Part shown: positions 3,462 to 37,114 of the stretch, piece after piece
Layout: each line of letters opens with the position of its first letter
How positions within the stretch are numbered: the stretch's first letter is position 1
Origin: Armatimonadota bacterium
GTDB lineage: Bacteria > Armatimonadota > HRBIN16
Direction of reading: 5' to 3'
Assembly (NCBI GenBank): GCA_026003175.1
Contig: BPGT01000002.1
Location: forward strand, 992,001-1,056,000
Length of the DNA: 64,000 bases
The notes under the pieces: model-generated
Told to the model about the DNA's origin: nothing
What the model saw: the letters and a program-made list of their open reading frames with translations, nothing else
The model's database searches: none
Position numbers and translations under genes: made by a program

Positions 3462-5447
3462 TCAATGGAATATCTGCAGCGTGGGCACACCCCACACGAC
3501 GCCAATCAACGACCACAGCGCGCCCATCGTGTAATCGCCCAGCACCAGCCCCAGAAAGAAAGGTAACGTGCGCCGATACATGCGCAATCCGCCGTAGCGC
3601 AGCACGAAAAACTTCACCAGCCACGCGATGAAAAACGGTAGCCACAGCCACACCAGCCCCGGACCGATGCAGTAGCCTAACGGATGGAACGGAAAGCCCA
3701 CAAAGCGCGTGCGCATGGCGTACAGAAACAGCGTGAACAGACTGGCAGCGCCCACCACCCCCCAGCGGTTCACCTCCGCCTTGAAGCCTGAGTGGATCGC
3801 TCCCTCCAGCCAGCTGAAACTCTCCCACCCTGTCCACTGCGCGAACCCTGCACATTTCGCCAGAGCGCCCTCGCGATACAACACATGCAGGCACGCCCAC
3901 TGCCCCGCTACCGTCGCTAGCGCGAGCGAAAGCAGTATCGGCAACACCAGTTGGCGCAACGGGATGCCGTGTTCCTGCGCCAGCTTGAAACCCTCCATCT
4001 GACTAGGCATGATATGGCTGCGGTTCAATCGCCAAAACCAGTGACTGAGCGCGGCAGCTGCCATCGTGGGAGCAGTCATCAGCGTGGAGTCGAACAGGCG
4101 GAAGAGGCGAATCGGCTCGAGGTCCCACACGGTGTGCTGTCCACCCGCCTCTGCACGCACGCGCGTGATGCAGAGCGCCAGCAGGAAATAGGTTCCCACC
4201 ATCAGCAGCACCCACTGCAGGCTCATGCCTGCCAGCCACCAGAAGCCCGTGAAAGCCACCAGCCCCACTATCGCACCCACCAGTGCCACGCGATACGACA
4301 GCGGTTCGCCCGCGTCCAGCAAACGGTCACCACGCCACGCGGCAATCAAAATCTCTTTCAGGTAGCTCCTGCTGGCATAGAGGAGCAGCACTCCAAAGGT
4401 GACCCACGCCCCGATGCCCTGTTCACTCACGTAGGGGAAATCGGGGATGTTGCTGTAGCCCAGCTGGTAGCCAATCACCATCTGCGCCTTGATGAACAGG
4501 TAGAAAAACCAGCACGAGAACGAAACATCCAGCGGCACCAGATACGCCAGTCCGATGGCGAAGGGATAAAAGGTGCGCACGAACCAGCCCACCGCCGTCC
4601 AAGGGGGTTGGGTGAACTGGATAGGCACCGCGCGCGTTTGGAAGTGCGGCAGGCTGGGAAACCACTCATGCAAGCCGTTGAGCAGGTCTAACCCCGCCGC
4701 CGCCAGAAACCCCAGCCAGAGCGCACGGGTGCGTATCATCGCGCCGGGAGTGAACGGCTCGGTAAGCGCAAGGGGCAGGCGCACGATGGGAAAGGAGAGG
4801 CGCGTCTGGTCCATCCATGCGCGGCGGAAAAGGGTGTTCAGGCACAGCATCGTCCAGCCCGCGATAAGGATGAACAGGCTCCAGAACGCCAGCGGAGCCG
4901 CCCACATCCTCAGCACTTCCATGCGGTAGAGCGTACTGTTGCCCTGAAAAAAGCCCTCCAGCCACTCTTTATCCCACACAAGTAACCAGCGAGGCAGATG
5001 TGGAAACAGCGTATCCTCCCAGCGGTTTGTCGGCGTAGCAAACCACCGCGCCCATCCCATGAGAGAAATGAGGTTGATAATAAAGTCGTGCGTGGCCACC
5101 GTACACGACATCACCAGCATCAGGTAGATGACCACCAGCTCCGCCGGATTTAGCACCCAGCGTGGAGCCAGTCGGCGTAACAGGGCATTCAGAAGCACCA
5201 GCACAAACAGGTAGAACACCGGCGTCACAAACAGCGGGTTGAGCGTGAGGATAGCGTACCAGCGCAGCTCCGCCACAATCACCCAGTACACATTCGGGGG
5301 GATAAGCAGCACACCCAGCAGGAGTGCGCGAAGTGAAACGCCTGCCAGTGGCTGACCAGATGTATCCCTATCGGCAGAATCGGTGGGTGAGCAGACGATA
5401 ATCTCTGTGCTACTCCCCTGGCTCTTCATATCACACCACTTCGCCAT
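3462..5447 (-). CDS. Large polytopic membrane protein, DUF6785/DUF6784-like
   Basis: About 660 residues. The product has at least a dozen hydrophobic segments. The first is GVLLIPPNVYWVIVAELRW, followed by a segment containing NPAELVVIYLMLVMSC. This arrangement resembles the uncharacterised DUF6785/DUF6784 membrane proteins common in Armatimonadota and planctomycete-like bacteria. These have been compared with peptide transporters, but their function is unproven. Start candidates are the ATGs at 5447 (a GGGGAAGG about 16 bases upstream) and 5429. A longer frame to 5564 runs into the neighbour's promoter and is unlikely. The gene is divergent from the PhyH dioxygenase. Confidence 0.65.
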   Translation of the reverse strand: MAKWCDMKSQGSSTEIIVCSPTDSADRDTSGQPLAGVSLRALLLGVLLIPPNVYWVIVAELRWYAILTLNPLFVTPVFYLFVLVLLNALLRRLAPRWVLNPAELVVIYLMLVMSCTVATHDFIINLISLMGWARWFATPTNRWEDTLFPHLPRWLLVWDKEWLEGFFQGNSTLYRMEVLRMWAAPLAFWSLFILIAGWTMLCLNTLFRRAWMDQTRLSFPIVRLPLALTEPFTPGAMIRTRALWLGFLAAAGLDLLNGLHEWFPSLPHFQTRAVPIQFTQPPWTAVGWFVRTFYPFAIGLAYLVPLDVSFSCWFFYLFIKAQMVIGYQLGYSNIPDFPYVSEQGIGAWVTFGVLLLYASRSYLKEILIAAWRGDRLLDAGEPLSYRVALVGAIVGLVAFTGFWWLAGMSLQWVLLMVGTYFLLALCITRVRAEAGGQHTVWDLEPIRLFRLFDSTLMTAPTMAAAALSHWFWRLNRSHIMPSQMEGFKLAQEHGIPLRQLVLPILLSLALATVAGQWACLHVLYREGALAKCAGFAQWTGWESFSWLEGAIHSGFKAEVNRWGVVGAASLFTLFLYAMRTRFVGFPFHPLGYCIGPGLVWLWLPFFIAWLVKFFVLRYGGLRMYRRTLPFFLGLVLGDYTMGALWSLIGVVWGVPTLQIFH

Positions 5448-5526
5448 ACACGACGTAACTGCCTTCCCCGGTTGGGACAAGAGCTCTGCATGGGAGTGTG
5501 TTTTTTTCCGCCCCCCCTCTCCCCTC

Positions 5527-5555
5527 TTGACTGCAGGCAACAGCACGAGTATAAT
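5527..5555 (+). promoter_or_regulatory. Sigma-70-type promoter for PhyH gene
   Basis: TTGACT at 5527-5532 and TATAAT at 5550-5555 are separated by exactly 17 bases. The start codon lies about 30 bases beyond the predicted transcription start, with AGGAGG in between. This is the strongest-looking promoter in the window. Confidence 0.75.
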
Positions 5556-5592
5556 CAGGTTCAAACAAAGACTGTGCCCAGGAGGAAAACCG

Positions 5593-6447
5593 ATGTCGTC
5601 CTTGCTCCCGACGGAAGCAGATGTGCAGTTTTACCGGGAGAACGGTTACTGGATCGCGCCCAAGATTCTGTCCGATGAGGAGTTGGAACTGCTTCGCGAA
5701 CACCATGCGAAGGTCATTGCGGGCGAGTACAGCACACAACGTCCCCCGTGGAGCCGTAACATCGAACCCGGACAACCGTTAGACCACATCGTGAAAATAG
5801 ATAACAGTTACTGGGCGGACGCAGTAATCGCACGTTATATCCTTCATCCCCTGATTGGGCAAATGGCGGCTCGCCTGACTGGCGCGAAAGGAATCCGCCT
5901 CTGGCATGACCAGCTGCTCTACAAACCGCCAGACACCGGCGCACGGGGCAACGTCGGCTGGCACCAGGACTACGGCTACTGGCAATGCGCCGACCCACCC
6001 GAGCTGCTCACCGCCTGGCTGGCTCTGGACGACGTGACTGAAGAGAACGGTTGTATGCAGGTGGTGCCGGGTAGCCATCAGTGGGGCTTGCTGCCAGAGG
6101 GGAACTTTTTCGAGCAGGACCTGGAGACACTCCAGCGACGTATCGAGGAGGTTTCCGGTCACCCCTGGCGCACCGCGAAGTGCGAAATGCCTGCGGGGGC
6201 ACTGAGCTTTCACCATTGCCTGACCATTCACGGCAGCGGTCCTAACTTCAGCCAGCGCCCACGTCGCTCATGGGCGATTCACCTCATGCCTGATGGCACG
6301 CGCTATCGTGCTGGTACTCCCAGTGATCGCCACATGAACGTCTTCCTTCTGGGCGGCAAGGACGGCGACCCGTTCGCAGGACCATATTTCCCCTTGTTAT
6401 ACCGTGAGGGAGAGGAGGCGAACGCCTGGCAGGTGTCCAATGAATAA
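5593..6447 (+). CDS. Phytanoyl-CoA dioxygenase (PhyH) family Fe(II)/2-oxoglutarate oxygenase
   Basis: 284 residues, starting at an ATG with a strong AGGAGG about 8 bases upstream. The product fits the PhyH family. The iron-binding triad is visible as H124-x-D126 in GWHQDYGYW and H213 in LTIHGSGPN, and the following RPRRSW carries the arginine expected to bind 2-oxoglutarate. The fold region LTAWLALDDVTEENGCMQVVPGSH is diagnostic of the family. The substrate cannot be told; relatives hydroxylate lipids, secondary metabolites and small acids. A near-consensus promoter lies just upstream. The downstream beta-helix gene starts near or overlaps its stop, so the two are probably co-transcribed. Confidence 0.85.
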   Translation: MSSLLPTEADVQFYRENGYWIAPKILSDEELELLREHHAKVIAGEYSTQRPPWSRNIEPGQPLDHIVKIDNSYWADAVIARYILHPLIGQMAARLTGAKGIRLWHDQLLYKPPDTGARGNVGWHQDYGYWQCADPPELLTAWLALDDVTEENGCMQVVPGSHQWGLLPEGNFFEQDLETLQRRIEEVSGHPWRTAKCEMPAGALSFHHCLTIHGSGPNFSQRPRRSWAIHLMPDGTRYRAGTPSDRHMNVFLLGGKDGDPFAGPYFPLLYREGEEANAWQVSNE

Positions 6448-31195: not shown

Positions 31196-34100
31196 GTTTC
31201 AATCCCTTATAGGTAGGCTCGTAACGGATGCAGATAAAGTTAAGCACGCCGAGCGAGATTTGCCGTTTCAATCCCTTATAGGTAGGCTCGTAACTGCCAC
31301 CTCCTGTAAAACCGCAATTCCTTCGAGACAAGTTTCAATCCCTTATAGGTAGGCTCGTAACTGTTCCGAGAGCCCATGCAAGTAAACTTCGGTGAGTGGT
31401 TTCAATCCCTTATAGGTAGGCTCGTAACGTGGAGTTTATCTGGGTGCCGCGTGAGCAGAACGCTGGTTTCAATCCCTTATAGGTAGGCTCGTAACTCGAC
31501 ATGCAGTACCCATACGTCAAGGTAATCGTCAGTTTCAATCCCTTATAGGTAGGCTCGTAACGGGAAGAGGACGCGAAATGACCGTAGTCCGGATTCGTTT
31601 CAATCCCTTATAGGTAGGCTCGTAACCCGGCTTCAAGGCAGCAATGGTGAACGCCGTGACGCGTTTCAATCCCTTATAGGTAGGCTCGTAACTCTCGAGC
31701 TCGACCACGCTAGTCGAGCTCGAGCATCGTTTCAATCCCTTATAGGTAGGCTCGTAACGCTCAAAGACGGTAAGCTCATTCTCTCAATCGATCCGTTTCA
31801 ATCCCTTATAGGTAGGCTCGTAACTATGGTGTACACCAACCTGCCTCCCGTTTCGGCAACGGTTTCAATCCCTTATAGGTAGGCTCGTAACTGGTGGCAT
31901 GTATGGCACTCCAGCCAATGTGCCACCGGTTTCAATCCCTTATAGGTAGGCTCGTAACGCCCGCGGCGCACACTCTGGATGTTGGTGATGCGTGTTTCAA
32001 TCCCTTATAGGTAGGCTCGTAACGCTTTGCCAGTGCCAGCACTACCAGCTGCCCAACGGTTTCAATCCCTTATAGGTAGGCTCGTAACGGTCTGGTCAAG
32101 ATAGATGATATCCTGGCATCGGACGGTTTCAATCCCTTATAGGTAGGCTCGTAACTCGTTCATCAGGTTAAGAGGCCGAATCAAGGACGAGGTTTCAATC
32201 CCTTATAGGTAGGCTCGTAACCGATGCGTGGTACCACCAGAATGGCGACTGGCAAATTGGTTTCAATCCCTTATAGGTAGGCTCGTAACCGCCCAGACCG
32301 CGCTGCTTCAGCAGTTCATGAAACTCGTTTCAATCCCTTATAGGTAGGCTCGTAACATCATCACCATTCTCATCTGCGCTGGGATGCTGTTCAGTTTCAA
32401 TCCCTTATAGGTAGGCTCGTAACACGCAAATGTATTCCACGCCATAGATGACCGCCTTGGTTTCAATCCCTTATAGGTAGGCTCGTAACATGACGCAGCT
32501 CTGGTTTGGGCACTCAAATGGATTCAGGTTTCAATCCCTTATAGGTAGGCTCGTAACCTGGCATCACGCAGTGCGAACAGCACGCGGTCAACGGGTTTCA
32601 ATCCCTTATAGGTAGGCTCGTAACCGTGCCTTGCAGGGACCAGATTGCGCCCGTGGTCGAAGGTTTCAATCCCTTATAGGTAGGCTCGTAACCGTACTAC
32701 CTCGGCGGTCTGGTCGATGGATGCGCCGTTTCAATCCCTTATAGGTAGGCTCGTAACATGGCTCTGGCTGCATCCCGGGCGAAGTCCGCCAGAACGTTTC
32801 AATCCCTTATAGGTAGGCTCGTAACGAACCCACGTCTTCATATCATCGTGCGCCTTCAACCGTTTCAATCCCTTATAGGTAGGCTCGTAACACGTCGCTG
32901 GCTGGCTATACGGCGACGCTGCAGGCAGTTTCAATCCCTTATAGGTAGGCTCGTAACGGACGAGCGGATGGTGCGGTTGTTGGAGGAGAACTATGTTTCA
33001 ATCCCTTATAGGTAGGCTCGTAACTGAATATTGCGATTACATTGCACATTATGGATTAACGTTTCAATCCCTTATAGGTAGGCTCGTAACGTGCCGTTGC
33101 TGGAAGCGGTCAAAGTACACAATGCGCAAGTTTCAATCCCTTATAGGTAGGCTCGTAACCAGCTGGGAAGGCAGTGAACTCCACATCGCTTGCAGCTGTT
33201 TCAATCCCTTATAGGTAGGCTCGTAACCGGCGCACGAGCGTCTGCTGTACGCCGAACCGGTTTGTTTCAATCCCTTATAGGTAGGCTCGTAACGATTCAT
33301 GGCATGGGCGGTAGACAGGTTCTTGTCGGTTTCAATCCCTTATAGGTAGGCTCGTAACGAGTGCAAAGCCCAGAGACGGCTATGGGGGGTTCTGGGTTTC
33401 AATCCCTTATAGGTAGGCTCGTAACCTTGCCATTCACGCACACTATCACCTGTTCGCCCTCGTTTCAATCCCTTATAGGTAGGCTCGTAACGTACCATGG
33501 CGCCACCTCGAGGTGGTAGCTCGTCTAGTTTCAATCCCTTATAGGTAGGCTCGTAACACTTTTTGAGTTGGTCCAGCAGTTCTTGCTTCTGCGGTTTCAA
33601 TCCCTTATAGGTAGGCTCGTAACATGATGTGGCTAATGCGGTTTGGGCAATGGTGATTGAGTTTCAATCCCTTATAGGTAGGCTCGTAACGAGTTGCTGC
33701 GCTGGGCGAAGTTGCGCGGTTACATCAGTTTCAATCCCTTATAGGTAGGCTCGTAACTGAACAAGACCGCCAGGCGCTTGGCAGCGACGTTCGTTTCAAT
33801 CCCTTATAGGTAGGCTCGTAACGGGGTGACCCTCGATGACAGCTAACCGCTACAAATACGTTTCAATCCCTTATAGGTAGGCTCGTAACTGCTGAACGTG
33901 GTGGCACTATCAGCTTTTCAATGAAGTTTCAATCCCTTATAGGTAGGCTCGTAACTCAGGATGGTCTAACGACGGATGATGGCGGTGCACAAGTTTCAAT
34001 CCCTTATAGGTAGGCTCGTAACTAGTGCTGGATGGGGACGGAAACGTAGTATTGGAGTTGTTTCAATCCCTTATAGGTAGGCTCGTAACGCAGTACGTTG

Positions 34101-36909
34101 TCCACATCCCCGCTGTAGACAACGACGTTTCAATCCCTTATAGGTAGGCTCGTAACGCGTTCGGTATGACCGAGCGCGAGCTTGCGACTCTCAGTTTCAA
34201 TCCCTTATAGGTAGGCTCGTAACTCGTGCCAGCGGTAGAGCCGACCGTGCCCGAATAGGTTGTTTCAATCCCTTATAGGTAGGCTCGTAACTGGCGAGCC
34301 GCACTGCGGGTGCGACCGCCCGCAGCACGTTTCAATCCCTTATAGGTAGGCTCGTAACCGCGACTAATGCAGATTGAGATACGCCCCACCGCGACGTTTC
34401 AATCCCTTATAGGTAGGCTCGTAACGGAGCTGAGCTGGAGCGGTTCGTCCGCTCCTTACTTCTCGGTTTCAATCCCTTATAGGTAGGCTCGTAACGGCTT
34501 GACGATGCCCATGGAGACCCCAGCAGGGAGAGGTTTCAATCCCTTATAGGTAGGCTCGTAACCGGTACTCTGGCGACGCGCGTTCGCGTGCTTGCCTCCA
34601 GGTTTCAATCCCTTATAGGTAGGCTCGTAACTGTAGATACGCCCGATGCGCGCTGGTAGATGGATGGGTTTCAATCCCTTATAGGTAGGCTCGTAACCGA
34701 GGACATCGCGGCTGACGATAGCCGGGCTCTCGTGCAGGTTTCAATCCCTTATAGGTAGGCTCGTAACAGTGCCCCACTGTCACGTACATACAACTCGTAT
34801 AACTCGTTTCAATCCCTTATAGGTAGGCTCGTAACGCAGTGCGGGCACGCACCCTGCGCGTCAGCGGTGCACGTTTCAATCCCTTATAGGTAGGCTCGTA
34901 ACCGGGGCACGCATCCCTGCGATTTCCCAGAGATACTCGTTTCAATCCCTTATAGGTAGGCTCGTAACCATTAGAACACCAGTGGGCTATTGCCCTGAAC
35001 GCTGCGTTTCAATCCCTTATAGGTAGGCTCGTAACTGGTGGGTGGGACAGGCGCAATCTTGCGCTGATATTGTTTCAATCCCTTATAGGTAGGCTCGTAA
35101 CCCTGTCATGATAACTTGGAACACAAGCCGTCGTCAGCGTTTCAATCCCTTATAGGTAGGCTCGTAACCACCAGGAAGGCAATCTCCCGTTGCTGCCATC
35201 TTTCCGTTTCAATCCCTTATAGGTAGGCTCGTAACTGAGCGGAGTGCCATCCGCACCCGGTTCCGTGCTGTGTTTCAATCCCTTATAGGTAGGCTCGTAA
35301 CGCAACACCGGCAGCATTGGTGTTGCGGTCTGCTGTAGTTTCAATCCCTTATAGGTAGGCTCGTAACCTGCGACAGTTTCACAGTGGATAAAAGCACCAG
35401 TCTTTGTTTCAATCCCTTATAGGTAGGCTCGTAACTTTCCCTCACCAATTGCACGGTGCGCTCAGGAAACGGTTTCAATCCCTTATAGGTAGGCTCGTAA
35501 CCAGCACGGCAACAGATGCACTCTGCAACTTTTTGAGTGTTTCAATCCCTTATAGGTAGGCTCGTAACAAGACCTGAACCGCCGATTGGAGATGCTTGCA
35601 CGAATGCGTTTCAATCCCTTATAGGTAGGCTCGTAACCTGAGAGTGACGCTGGACGGCAACGAAGACGCCGAGTTTCAATCCCTTATAGGTAGGCTCGTA
35701 ACTGGTACTGAACCCAGCCAGAAGCTGCTGCACTACCAGCGTTTCAATCCCTTATAGGTAGGCTCGTAACGGGCATCGCCGGTCAGCCCCTTCACGGGCA
35801 CGGCAGGTTTCAATCCCTTATAGGTAGGCTCGTAACTCGCTGGAGAAGCCTATCGTGGCTATGGCGTCTAACCCGTTTCAATCCCTTATAGGTAGGCTCG
35901 TAACCATTGCAGGCTGGGATCTGGCAAAGGAACAAGACTGGAGTTTCAATCCCTTATAGGTAGGCTCGTAACCCACAATCGATGGCGTGGAACACGACTT
36001 GACCGACTATGGTTTCAATCCCTTATAGGTAGGCTCGTAACCTTGTGGATTTCCATCTCTGCACCTGCAACATGTCGTTTCAATCCCTTATAGGTAGGCT
36101 CGTAACGAGAGGATGTTGGATACAAGCGTCGCAGTGACGATGCGCGTTTCAATCCCTTATAGGTAGGCTCGTAACAGTGCGTACACCGCTGGGACAGTTG
36201 CAAGTTGCGGTGTTTCAATCCCTTATAGGTAGGCTCGTAACAACGATCGACGAAGTGTTAGCAGTACTATCTGCTAGGTTTCAATCCCTTATAGGTAGGC
36301 TCGTAACCTGAAGACGTCGTATTGCGCATACGCGGGCAATGGACGTTTCAATCCCTTATAGGTAGGCTCGTAACTGAAGCCGGTTCCGTTGTAGACGAAC
36401 GTGCCTCTCTTCGTTTCAATCCCTTATAGGTAGGCTCGTAACGGGTACGAATGTCCAGTACGCCGGTGCGCACGAGTTGTTTCAATCCCTTATAGGTAGG
36501 CTCGTAACCCCAACTGGTGATGCGTCGCTGCAGCTTCTTCTCGAGTTTCAATCCCTTATAGGTAGGCTCGTAACCGTCTCGATGGTGAGTTTCCAGCTAC
36601 TGTTCTCGCGACGTTTCAATCCCTTATAGGTAGGCTCGTAACCTTTCATCTTCTCCAGAATGCGTGGCAGGAAGCGGTTTCAATCCCTTATAGGTAGGCT
36701 CGTAACCAGCCTGTGGCTGCCAAGGTATCCTGCTGGAGGGACGGTTTCAATCCCTTATAGGTAGGCTCGTAACTTGGTGGTAACGGTACAAACATTACCT
36801 TAAACACCAGTAGGTTTCAATCCCTTATAGGTAGGCTCGTAACACCCACTCAGCAGCACCCCACCTAACACCTGTCCGAGTTTCAATCCCTTATAGGTAG
36901 GCTCGTAAC
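31196..36909 (-). CRISPR. CRISPR array, 86 repeats and 85 spacers
   Basis: By eye I count 86 copies of a 30-bp repeat at spacings of 64-70 bases (mean about 67). On the plus strand it begins GTTTCAATCCCTTATAGG and ends TAGGCTCGTAAC. All copies look identical. On the minus strand the repeat begins GTTACGAGCC and ends GGGATTGAAAC; the ATTGAAAC end is the usual crRNA 5' tag of type I-A/I-B/III arrays, so transcription is leftward. An AT-rich leader with a promoter on the right (36990-37018) agrees. The repeat has little hairpin potential. Spacers are about 34-40 nt. No cas gene is within the window, so the Cas proteins must be encoded elsewhere. Confidence 0.98.
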
Positions 36910-36989
36910 CAACAGTTTTTGTCGTTTGATGAGAAAATTAAACTGGTTGTCAAGGAACACCCCGCTGGGAACCGCCACGCTTTGCCTCT
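36910..36989 (-). promoter_or_regulatory. CRISPR leader
   Basis: About 80 bases between the predicted transcription start and the first leader-side repeat. The leader-proximal 45 bases are AT-rich (minus strand has TTGACAACCAGTTTAATTTT). New spacers should be inserted next to it. No gene of its own; short frames across it are not credible. Confidence 0.65.
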
Positions 36990-37018
36990 ATTCTATCATA
37001 GTCCCCGCAAAAATGCAA
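36990..37018 (-). promoter_or_regulatory. Promoter of pre-crRNA
   Basis: On the minus strand TTGCAT (37013-37018) and TAGAAT (36990-36995) are exactly 17 bases apart. It directs transcription leftward into the array, with a start about 75 bases before the first repeat. Confidence 0.65.
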
Positions 37019-37065
37019 GCCTTTGGGGCACATTGGCGCAAAATTTTTTGTGTAGCTACGCCAAA

Positions 37066-37114
37066 GAGTCGTCTACCTCCTTCGTGGAGATACCGAATCG
37101 GAGGTAGACGACTC
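37066..37114 (-). terminator. 15-bp inverted repeat between Mo-hydroxylase operon and CRISPR leader
   Basis: GAGTCGTCTACCTCC (37066-37080) and GGAGGTAGACGACTC (37100-37114) are perfectly inverted around a 19-base loop. It lies just past the stop of the operon's last gene (37140) and could shield the leader from read-through. The loop is long and the T-run weak, so a regulator site or attenuator is also possible. Confidence 0.5.

What the first reader, a model, noticed from the sequence alone, without database searches (positions are those of the whole stretch)
31693..31728. One spacer is a near-perfect 12-bp hairpin
Within the spacer, CTCGAGCTCGAC (31694-31705) and GTCGAGCTCGAG (31713-31724) are perfectly inverted around a 7-base loop. 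Chance is very small for a 36-base spacer. The crRNA would fold on itself, which should hinder target pairing. The source may be a structured element of a mobile genome (origin, terminator, or att site).
Basis: seen in the sequence. Interest (0 to 1): 0.6.

Follow-up and report, generated by a model that had tools for sequence, protein, structure and literature searches.

The report
Ordinary CRISPR spacer with chance-like hairpin
One of 85 memory segments in a bacterial CRISPR immune array folds back on itself perfectly; the fold is real and the strongest of 427 segments compared, but its source was not found, and segments like it should turn up by chance about once in every 4,000-6,000, so it is most likely an ordinary piece of foreign DNA.

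Summary
Spacer 31693-31728 has two perfectly complementary 12-bp arms around CACGCTA, and it is the most strongly folded spacer of this array and of 427 unique spacers from its genus. The strand needs correcting. The array is read from the minus strand: the reverse-complement repeat ends in ATTGAAAC, the conserved leader lies at the right, and protospacers of other spacers carry a 5'-CCR PAM. The crRNA stem is therefore 14 bp around GCG (-24.8 kcal/mol). Chance is not "very small": real host and phage DNA holds a 12-bp stem in 1.6-2.6 per 10,000 36-mers, i.e. about 0.02 expected in 85 spacers and 0.07-0.11 in 427. Each arm is essentially the palindrome TCGAGCTCGA, so two copies make a hairpin automatically. 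Among 84 paired palindromes in viral contigs, 82 sit inside long open reading frames. A Planctomycetota gene has the same 9-base-spaced pair as SSSNIHVELD; the spacer's third frame reads SSSTTLVELEH. No protospacer was found, but a 34.6-kb phage in a sister species carries protospacers of neighbouring spacers. Best reading: an ordinary phage-type spacer whose hairpin is incidental and may weaken its crRNA. A structured non-coding source is not excluded.

The parts
31196..36909 (-). CRISPR array: 86 identical repeats (GTTTCAATCCCTTATAGGTAGGCTCGTAAC as written on +; crRNA sense GTTACGAGCCTACCTATAAGGGATTGAAAC), 85 spacers of 34-40 nt
   Evidence: Rfam CRISPR-DR2 RF01315 on the repeats
31693..31728 (-). 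the hairpin spacer, 36 nt, 8th from the leader-distal (old) end
31694..31705 (.). left arm CTCGAGCTCGAC; contains palindrome TCGAGCTCGA at 31695-31704
31706..31712 (.). loop CACGCTA on +; in the crRNA (minus) the stem extends by A-U and U.G to 14 bp and the loop shrinks to GCG (31708-31710)
31713..31724 (.). right arm GTCGAGCTCGAG; contains palindrome TCGAGCTCGA at 31714-31723
36910..37113 (-). leader of the array, 99% identical over 204 nt to the flank of the cas-adjacent array on contig 7 and conserved across the genus; the left flank is not conserved between the arrays of this genome

Best explanation
This is an ordinary, old spacer of an array that has the same repeat and leader as arrays beside I-B, III-A and III-B cas genes in this genome, captured from foreign (phage-type) DNA. 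The hairpin is an incidental property of the captured sequence, not an acquired function. The likeliest way such a sequence arises is GC-rich coding DNA in which the palindromic codon strings TCG-AGC-TCG (Ser-Ser-Ser) and (GTC)-GAG-CTC-GAG (Val-Glu-Leu-Glu) lie close together, as in frame +3 of the spacer, SSSTTLVELEH. Each string sits in the palindrome TCGAGCTCGA, so two of them make a perfect hairpin without selection for structure. Its crRNA, transcribed from the minus strand, would carry a 14-bp stem. By inference (not shown here) it would be harder to process or load and slower to find targets than its neighbours, unless the Cas7 backbone unfolds it. SHOWN: array, orientation, hairpin, base rates, and that neighbouring spacers match a phage with a CCR PAM. 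INFERRED: coding origin and weak function.
For: Real-DNA base rates make one 12-bp stem in 427 spacers unremarkable (expected about 0.07-0.11). The whole spacer set shows the stem frequency of ordinary DNA: 5 spacers with stems of 8 bp or more against 2.5-5.5 expected. Neighbouring spacers match a 34.6-kb temperate phage or prophage in a sister species (G004 contig 8: terminase, portal, major head protein, serine integrase, endolysin) at 24 places (all genus arrays together) with a reversed-sequence control of 0. Of these, 18 of 24 have CCA or CCG at the 5' side, which fixes the crRNA strand and the kind of source; of the 22 closest matches in it, 19 lie wholly inside long open frames. Of 84 paired CGAGCTCGA...TCGAGCTCG palindromes in IMG/VR loci, 82 lie in open frames of at least 100 codons, mostly ELE, SSS or RAR strings, and 80 of 84 are spaced in phase. 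Two unrelated genomes have the exact 9-base-spaced pair; one is the coding string SSSNIHVELDT in the same frame as the spacer's SSSTTLVELEH.
Against: No protospacer was found, so coding origin is an analogy. The spacer's pair is spaced 19 bp (out of phase), and only 4 of 84 viral pairs are out of phase. The C8 phage itself carries perfect hairpins of 12 bp or more in gaps between its open frames as well as one in the tape-measure-like frame, so a structured intergenic source is also plausible. The viral null uses contigs that were selected for GC-rich palindromes (hit regions masked).
Confidence: 0.66

Rival explanations
1. The protospacer is a structured non-coding element of a phage or plasmid: paired palindromic operators 19 bp apart, a replication-origin or packaging hairpin, or a terminator stem.
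For: The arms are self-palindromic 10-mers 19 bp apart, as in tandem operator sites; of the genus phage's four longest perfect hairpins, three (12-13 bp) lie between open frames and one (16 bp) inside the tape-measure-like frame. The pair spacing is out of coding phase, unlike most viral examples.
Against: No second copy in 2.9 million viral contigs, 84,980 genomes, 72,556 plasmids or 50,697 phages at the sensitivities used. No T-tract follows the stem in the + reading (CATC); in the minus reading the next base is A. Only about 8% of the genus phage is outside long + frames.
Confidence: 0.25
2. The hairpin is a by-product of acquisition: a fold-back single strand or an inverted duplication was integrated by Cas1-Cas2, so the second arm was copied from the first.
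For: Perfect 12-bp arms without a single mismatch; no natural source found.
Against: No other spacer among 427 has a stem above 9 bp, so there is no sign of a recurring process. The non-arm bases (T, CACGCTA, CATC) and the 36-nt length are ordinary for the array.
Confidence: 0.04
3. The fold is a selected feature of the crRNA (a regulatory or decoy small RNA, or a guide that reads either strand because it is nearly self-complementary).
For: Lowest folding energy of 85 and of 427 spacers; the stem is predicted to persist to 80 C.
Against: Present in one genome only: not found in the 9 genus relatives nor in any other of the 291 phylum genomes searched with up to 3 mismatches; no Rfam match; a single unrepeated spacer at the old end of the array.
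Confidence: 0.05

Closest known systems
CRISPR spacers of type I-B / III-A / III-B systems sharing one repeat
   Same: 30-bp repeat ending ATTGAAAC in crRNA sense, 34-40-nt spacers, conserved leader; one other array of this genome is flanked by I-B cas7/cas5/cas3/cas4/cas1b on one side and III-A csm1-5 on the other, and another by III-B cmr genes; a Cas6 gene is present; neighbouring spacers match a phage with a CCR PAM
   Different: this one spacer has a 12-bp perfect self-complementary stem (14 bp in the crRNA), the longest of 427
Structured-spacer guides studied in Cas9, Cas12a and Cas13a systems (PMC4906408, PMC6610086, PMC7967054)
   Same: a hairpin within or through the spacer; [quoted passage not shown]
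   Different: those were designed or synthetic class 2 guides; here it is a natural class 1 spacer with no activity data
Intrinsic terminators and operator palindromes of phages
   Same: perfect inverted repeat of terminator or operator size
   Different: no T-tract, no recurrence in any searched collection, no located source

Membership tests
CRISPR array spacer | unique 30-40-nt sequence between identical repeats in an array with a leader | tested here: met
   86 identical repeats, 85 spacers; leader shared with other arrays
CRISPR array spacer | cas genes in the genome able to process and use it | tested here: met
   I-B Cas7, Cas5, Cas3, Cas4, Cas1b; III-A Csm1-5; III-B Cmr1-5; Cas6, beside sister arrays with the same repeat and leader, not beside this array
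CRISPR array spacer | matching protospacer with PAM in a mobile element (supportive, not obligatory) | tested here: inconclusive
   none found for this spacer; found for other spacers of the same array, PAM CCR. A missing protospacer is usual and does not exclude membership
Intrinsic terminator | G+C-rich stem directly followed by a run of T | tested here: not met
   + strand continues CATC; on the minus strand the next base is A, then the spacer ends
att site / origin / operator of a mobile element | same element found in a mobile genome at a functional position | tested here: inconclusive
   no copy found in any collection searched; metagenome contigs could not be scanned
Palindromic codon strings in coding DNA (SSS / VELE) | open frame through the sequence with such codons, and precedent in real genes | tested here: inconclusive
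   +3 frame SSSTTLVELEH and three other frames are open; precedents in viral ORFs and L083 SSSNIHVELDT; the actual gene was not found

The most novel reading that the evidence does not exclude
The spacer records a recurrent structured non-coding element (paired palindromic operator or origin hairpin) of an unsampled mobile element, and its nearly self-complementary crRNA can recognise both strands or transcripts of that element.
Probability: 0.08. Interest if true: 0.45.

Novelty: new member of a known kind. Interest (0 to 1): 0.15.

Why it matters
On its own, little: it is one natural example of a strongly self-folding class 1 spacer, usable as a test case for whether Cascade and Csm/Cmr tolerate structured guides. 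The by-product is more useful: a phage in a sister species that fixes the PAM (CCR) and crRNA strand of a three-effector CRISPR genus with no studied phages that I know of.

Tried and rejected
Protospacer searches with both arms and any loop, each half, and the loop core in IMG/VR (0 hits); both arms in GTDB genomes (0); blastn against phages (one 17-base chance match, E 5) and plasmids (best 83% coverage at 87%, E 4; rejected as chance). A relaxed-arm hit L016 is coding DNA of a phage-like contig (open frame L016:2903-4618...LSSSIDQLEVEF...) and shares only the SSS/LEVE codon theme; not a protospacer. The Bradyrhizobium pair (L082) straddles the end of a gene and looks like chance. The hairpin in the C8 phage: best place has 15 mismatches, so absent. 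A terminator: no T-tract. An RNA family: none at the spacer. A homologous spacer in relatives: none. I considered that CTCGAG repeats are simple low-complexity sequence; the arms are about two copies of the self-complementary hexamer CTCGAG, but the two runs are out of register, so this is only part of the story.

Full report
OBSERVATION. The hairpin is real and exactly where stated. Spacer 31693-31728 (TCTCGAGCTCGACCACGCTAGTCGAGCTCGAGCATC) has arms 31694-31705 and 31713-31724, perfectly complementary, loop CACGCTA. It is spacer 8 of 85, counted from the left, in an array of 86 identical 30-bp repeats, 31196-36909. The next-longest perfect stem in the array is 8 bp, and in 427 unique spacers of the genus it is 9 bp. 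As RNA it folds at -21.8 (plus) or -24.8 kcal/mol (minus), z about -5, none of 200 shuffles as stable.

STRAND. The reverse complement of the repeat ends in ATTGAAAC, the usual 8-nt crRNA handle of I-B and type III systems (established knowledge). The right flank of the array is 99% identical over 204 nt to the flank of another array in this genome and is conserved in the genus; the left flanks of the arrays in this genome are not similar, and degenerate repeats sit at the left in two other arrays. Protospacers of other spacers have CCA or CCG at the 5' side in crRNA sense. All three say that the crRNA comes from the minus strand and that the hairpin spacer lies near the old end. In that sense the stem gains an A-U and a U.G pair (14 bp, triloop GCG), nucleotides 1-4 of the guide stay free, and the stem is predicted to persist even at 80 C.

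HOW RARE. Markov models make it very rare (one spacer of 12 bp or more in 80,000 over two models). Real DNA does not: 36-mers with a stem of 12 bp or more make up 2.2e-4 of 482 kb of host DNA, 2.6e-4 of 717 kb of viral DNA and 1.6e-4 of 25,285 CCR-flanked 36-mers in regions of the genus fetched around terminase genes. The expectation is 0.014-0.022 for 85 spacers and 0.07-0.11 for 427. None of 2,648 CCR-flanked 36-mers of the C8 phage reached 12 bp. Spacers of this genus as a whole have the stem distribution of ordinary DNA: 5 with 8 bp or more, 2.5-5.5 expected.

SYSTEM. The genome has two more arrays with the same repeat. One lies between I-B cas7, cas5, cas3, cas4, cas1b and III-A csm1-5; another beside III-B cmr genes; a Cas6 gene is also present. 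The array in the window is a stand-alone array between a Gfo/Idh-type oxidoreductase and a xanthine-dehydrogenase-type operon.

SOURCE. No protospacer for this spacer was found in IMG/VR (arms with any loop, both halves, core), GTDB genomes, phages, plasmids, 291 genomes of the phylum with up to 3 mismatches, or genus prophage regions. Other spacers gave the kind of source: contig 8 of sister species G004, 34,567 bp, encodes terminase, portal, major head protein, serine integrase and endolysin and carries 24 protospacers of genus arrays, 8 of them from the window array, with none for reversed controls; 18 of 24 have a CCR PAM. The hairpin is absent from it.

WHY A HAIRPIN. Each arm is essentially the 10-bp palindrome TCGAGCTCGA; any two copies of a palindrome form a hairpin. 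In viral contigs, pairs of this palindrome core are common (the scan stopped at 120 stretches). Of the 84 pairs in the 80 loci listed, 82 lie in open frames of 100 codons or more, as ELE, SSS or RAR strings, and 80 are in phase. The exact 9-base gap of the spacer occurs twice in GTDB genomes, once as coding SSSNIHVELDT. The spacer's + strand third frame reads SSSTTLVELEH, the same arrangement. This makes a coding origin the most economical explanation, though unproven; the out-of-phase spacing and the phage's own hairpins between open frames keep a structured source possible (about 0.25).

FUNCTION. Inferred only. Studies of class 2 guides report that hairpins involving the spacer reduce cleavage (PMC4906408), go with low crRNA abundance and activity in Cas12a arrays (PMC6610086), or lower affinity of Cas13a for the guide (PMC7967054). 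I found no study of class 1 crRNAs with such spacers, which is not evidence that none exists. A 36-bp pairing with target (about -78 kcal/mol, RNA:RNA estimate) outweighs the stem, so the cost would be kinetic or in loading, not in final stability.

VERDICT. Real but ordinary: the hairpin is the tail of the distribution expected of phage DNA. Interest is low.

Noticed in passing
G004 contig 8 (loci L209, L210; 34,567 bp): A temperate phage or prophage in a sister species carries 24 protospacers of genus arrays (8 from the window array, two perfect), PAM 5'-CCR. In 18 of 24 the crRNA is antisense to the predominantly plus-strand genes, as expected if type III effectors use these guides.
   Followed up: partly
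own genome sample (400 kb, L062-L081); spacer 31693-31728 holds two copies: CTCGAG is about fivefold under-represented in the host (26 seen, 125 expected from base composition) and GAGCTC twofold; a restriction-modification signature is possible.
   Followed up: no
L011 (own contig 7 array), L012 (own contig 2 second array), L048: Several arrays hold identical spacers in two or three copies (e.g. ACACTCACAACACTCACAACACCTGCAACATCAGCACCG three times in a row), suggesting array duplications.
   Followed up: no
window 31959-31993 and 33091-33129: Spacers overlap spacers of another species (L014, 28 of 35 nt identical) or of another array of this genome (L012, 35 of 36 identical): independently sampled protospacer regions.
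   Followed up: partly
window 33503-33516, in spacer 33492-33527: A second palindrome, CCACCTCGAGGTGG (14 bp, no loop), also centred on CTCGAG.
   Followed up: no
G000 contig 6:140266-141537 and one homologue or more in all 10 genus genomes: A terminase-like gene is present in every genome of the genus (31-38% identical to the phage's), perhaps a conserved prophage or gene-transfer agent.
   Followed up: no
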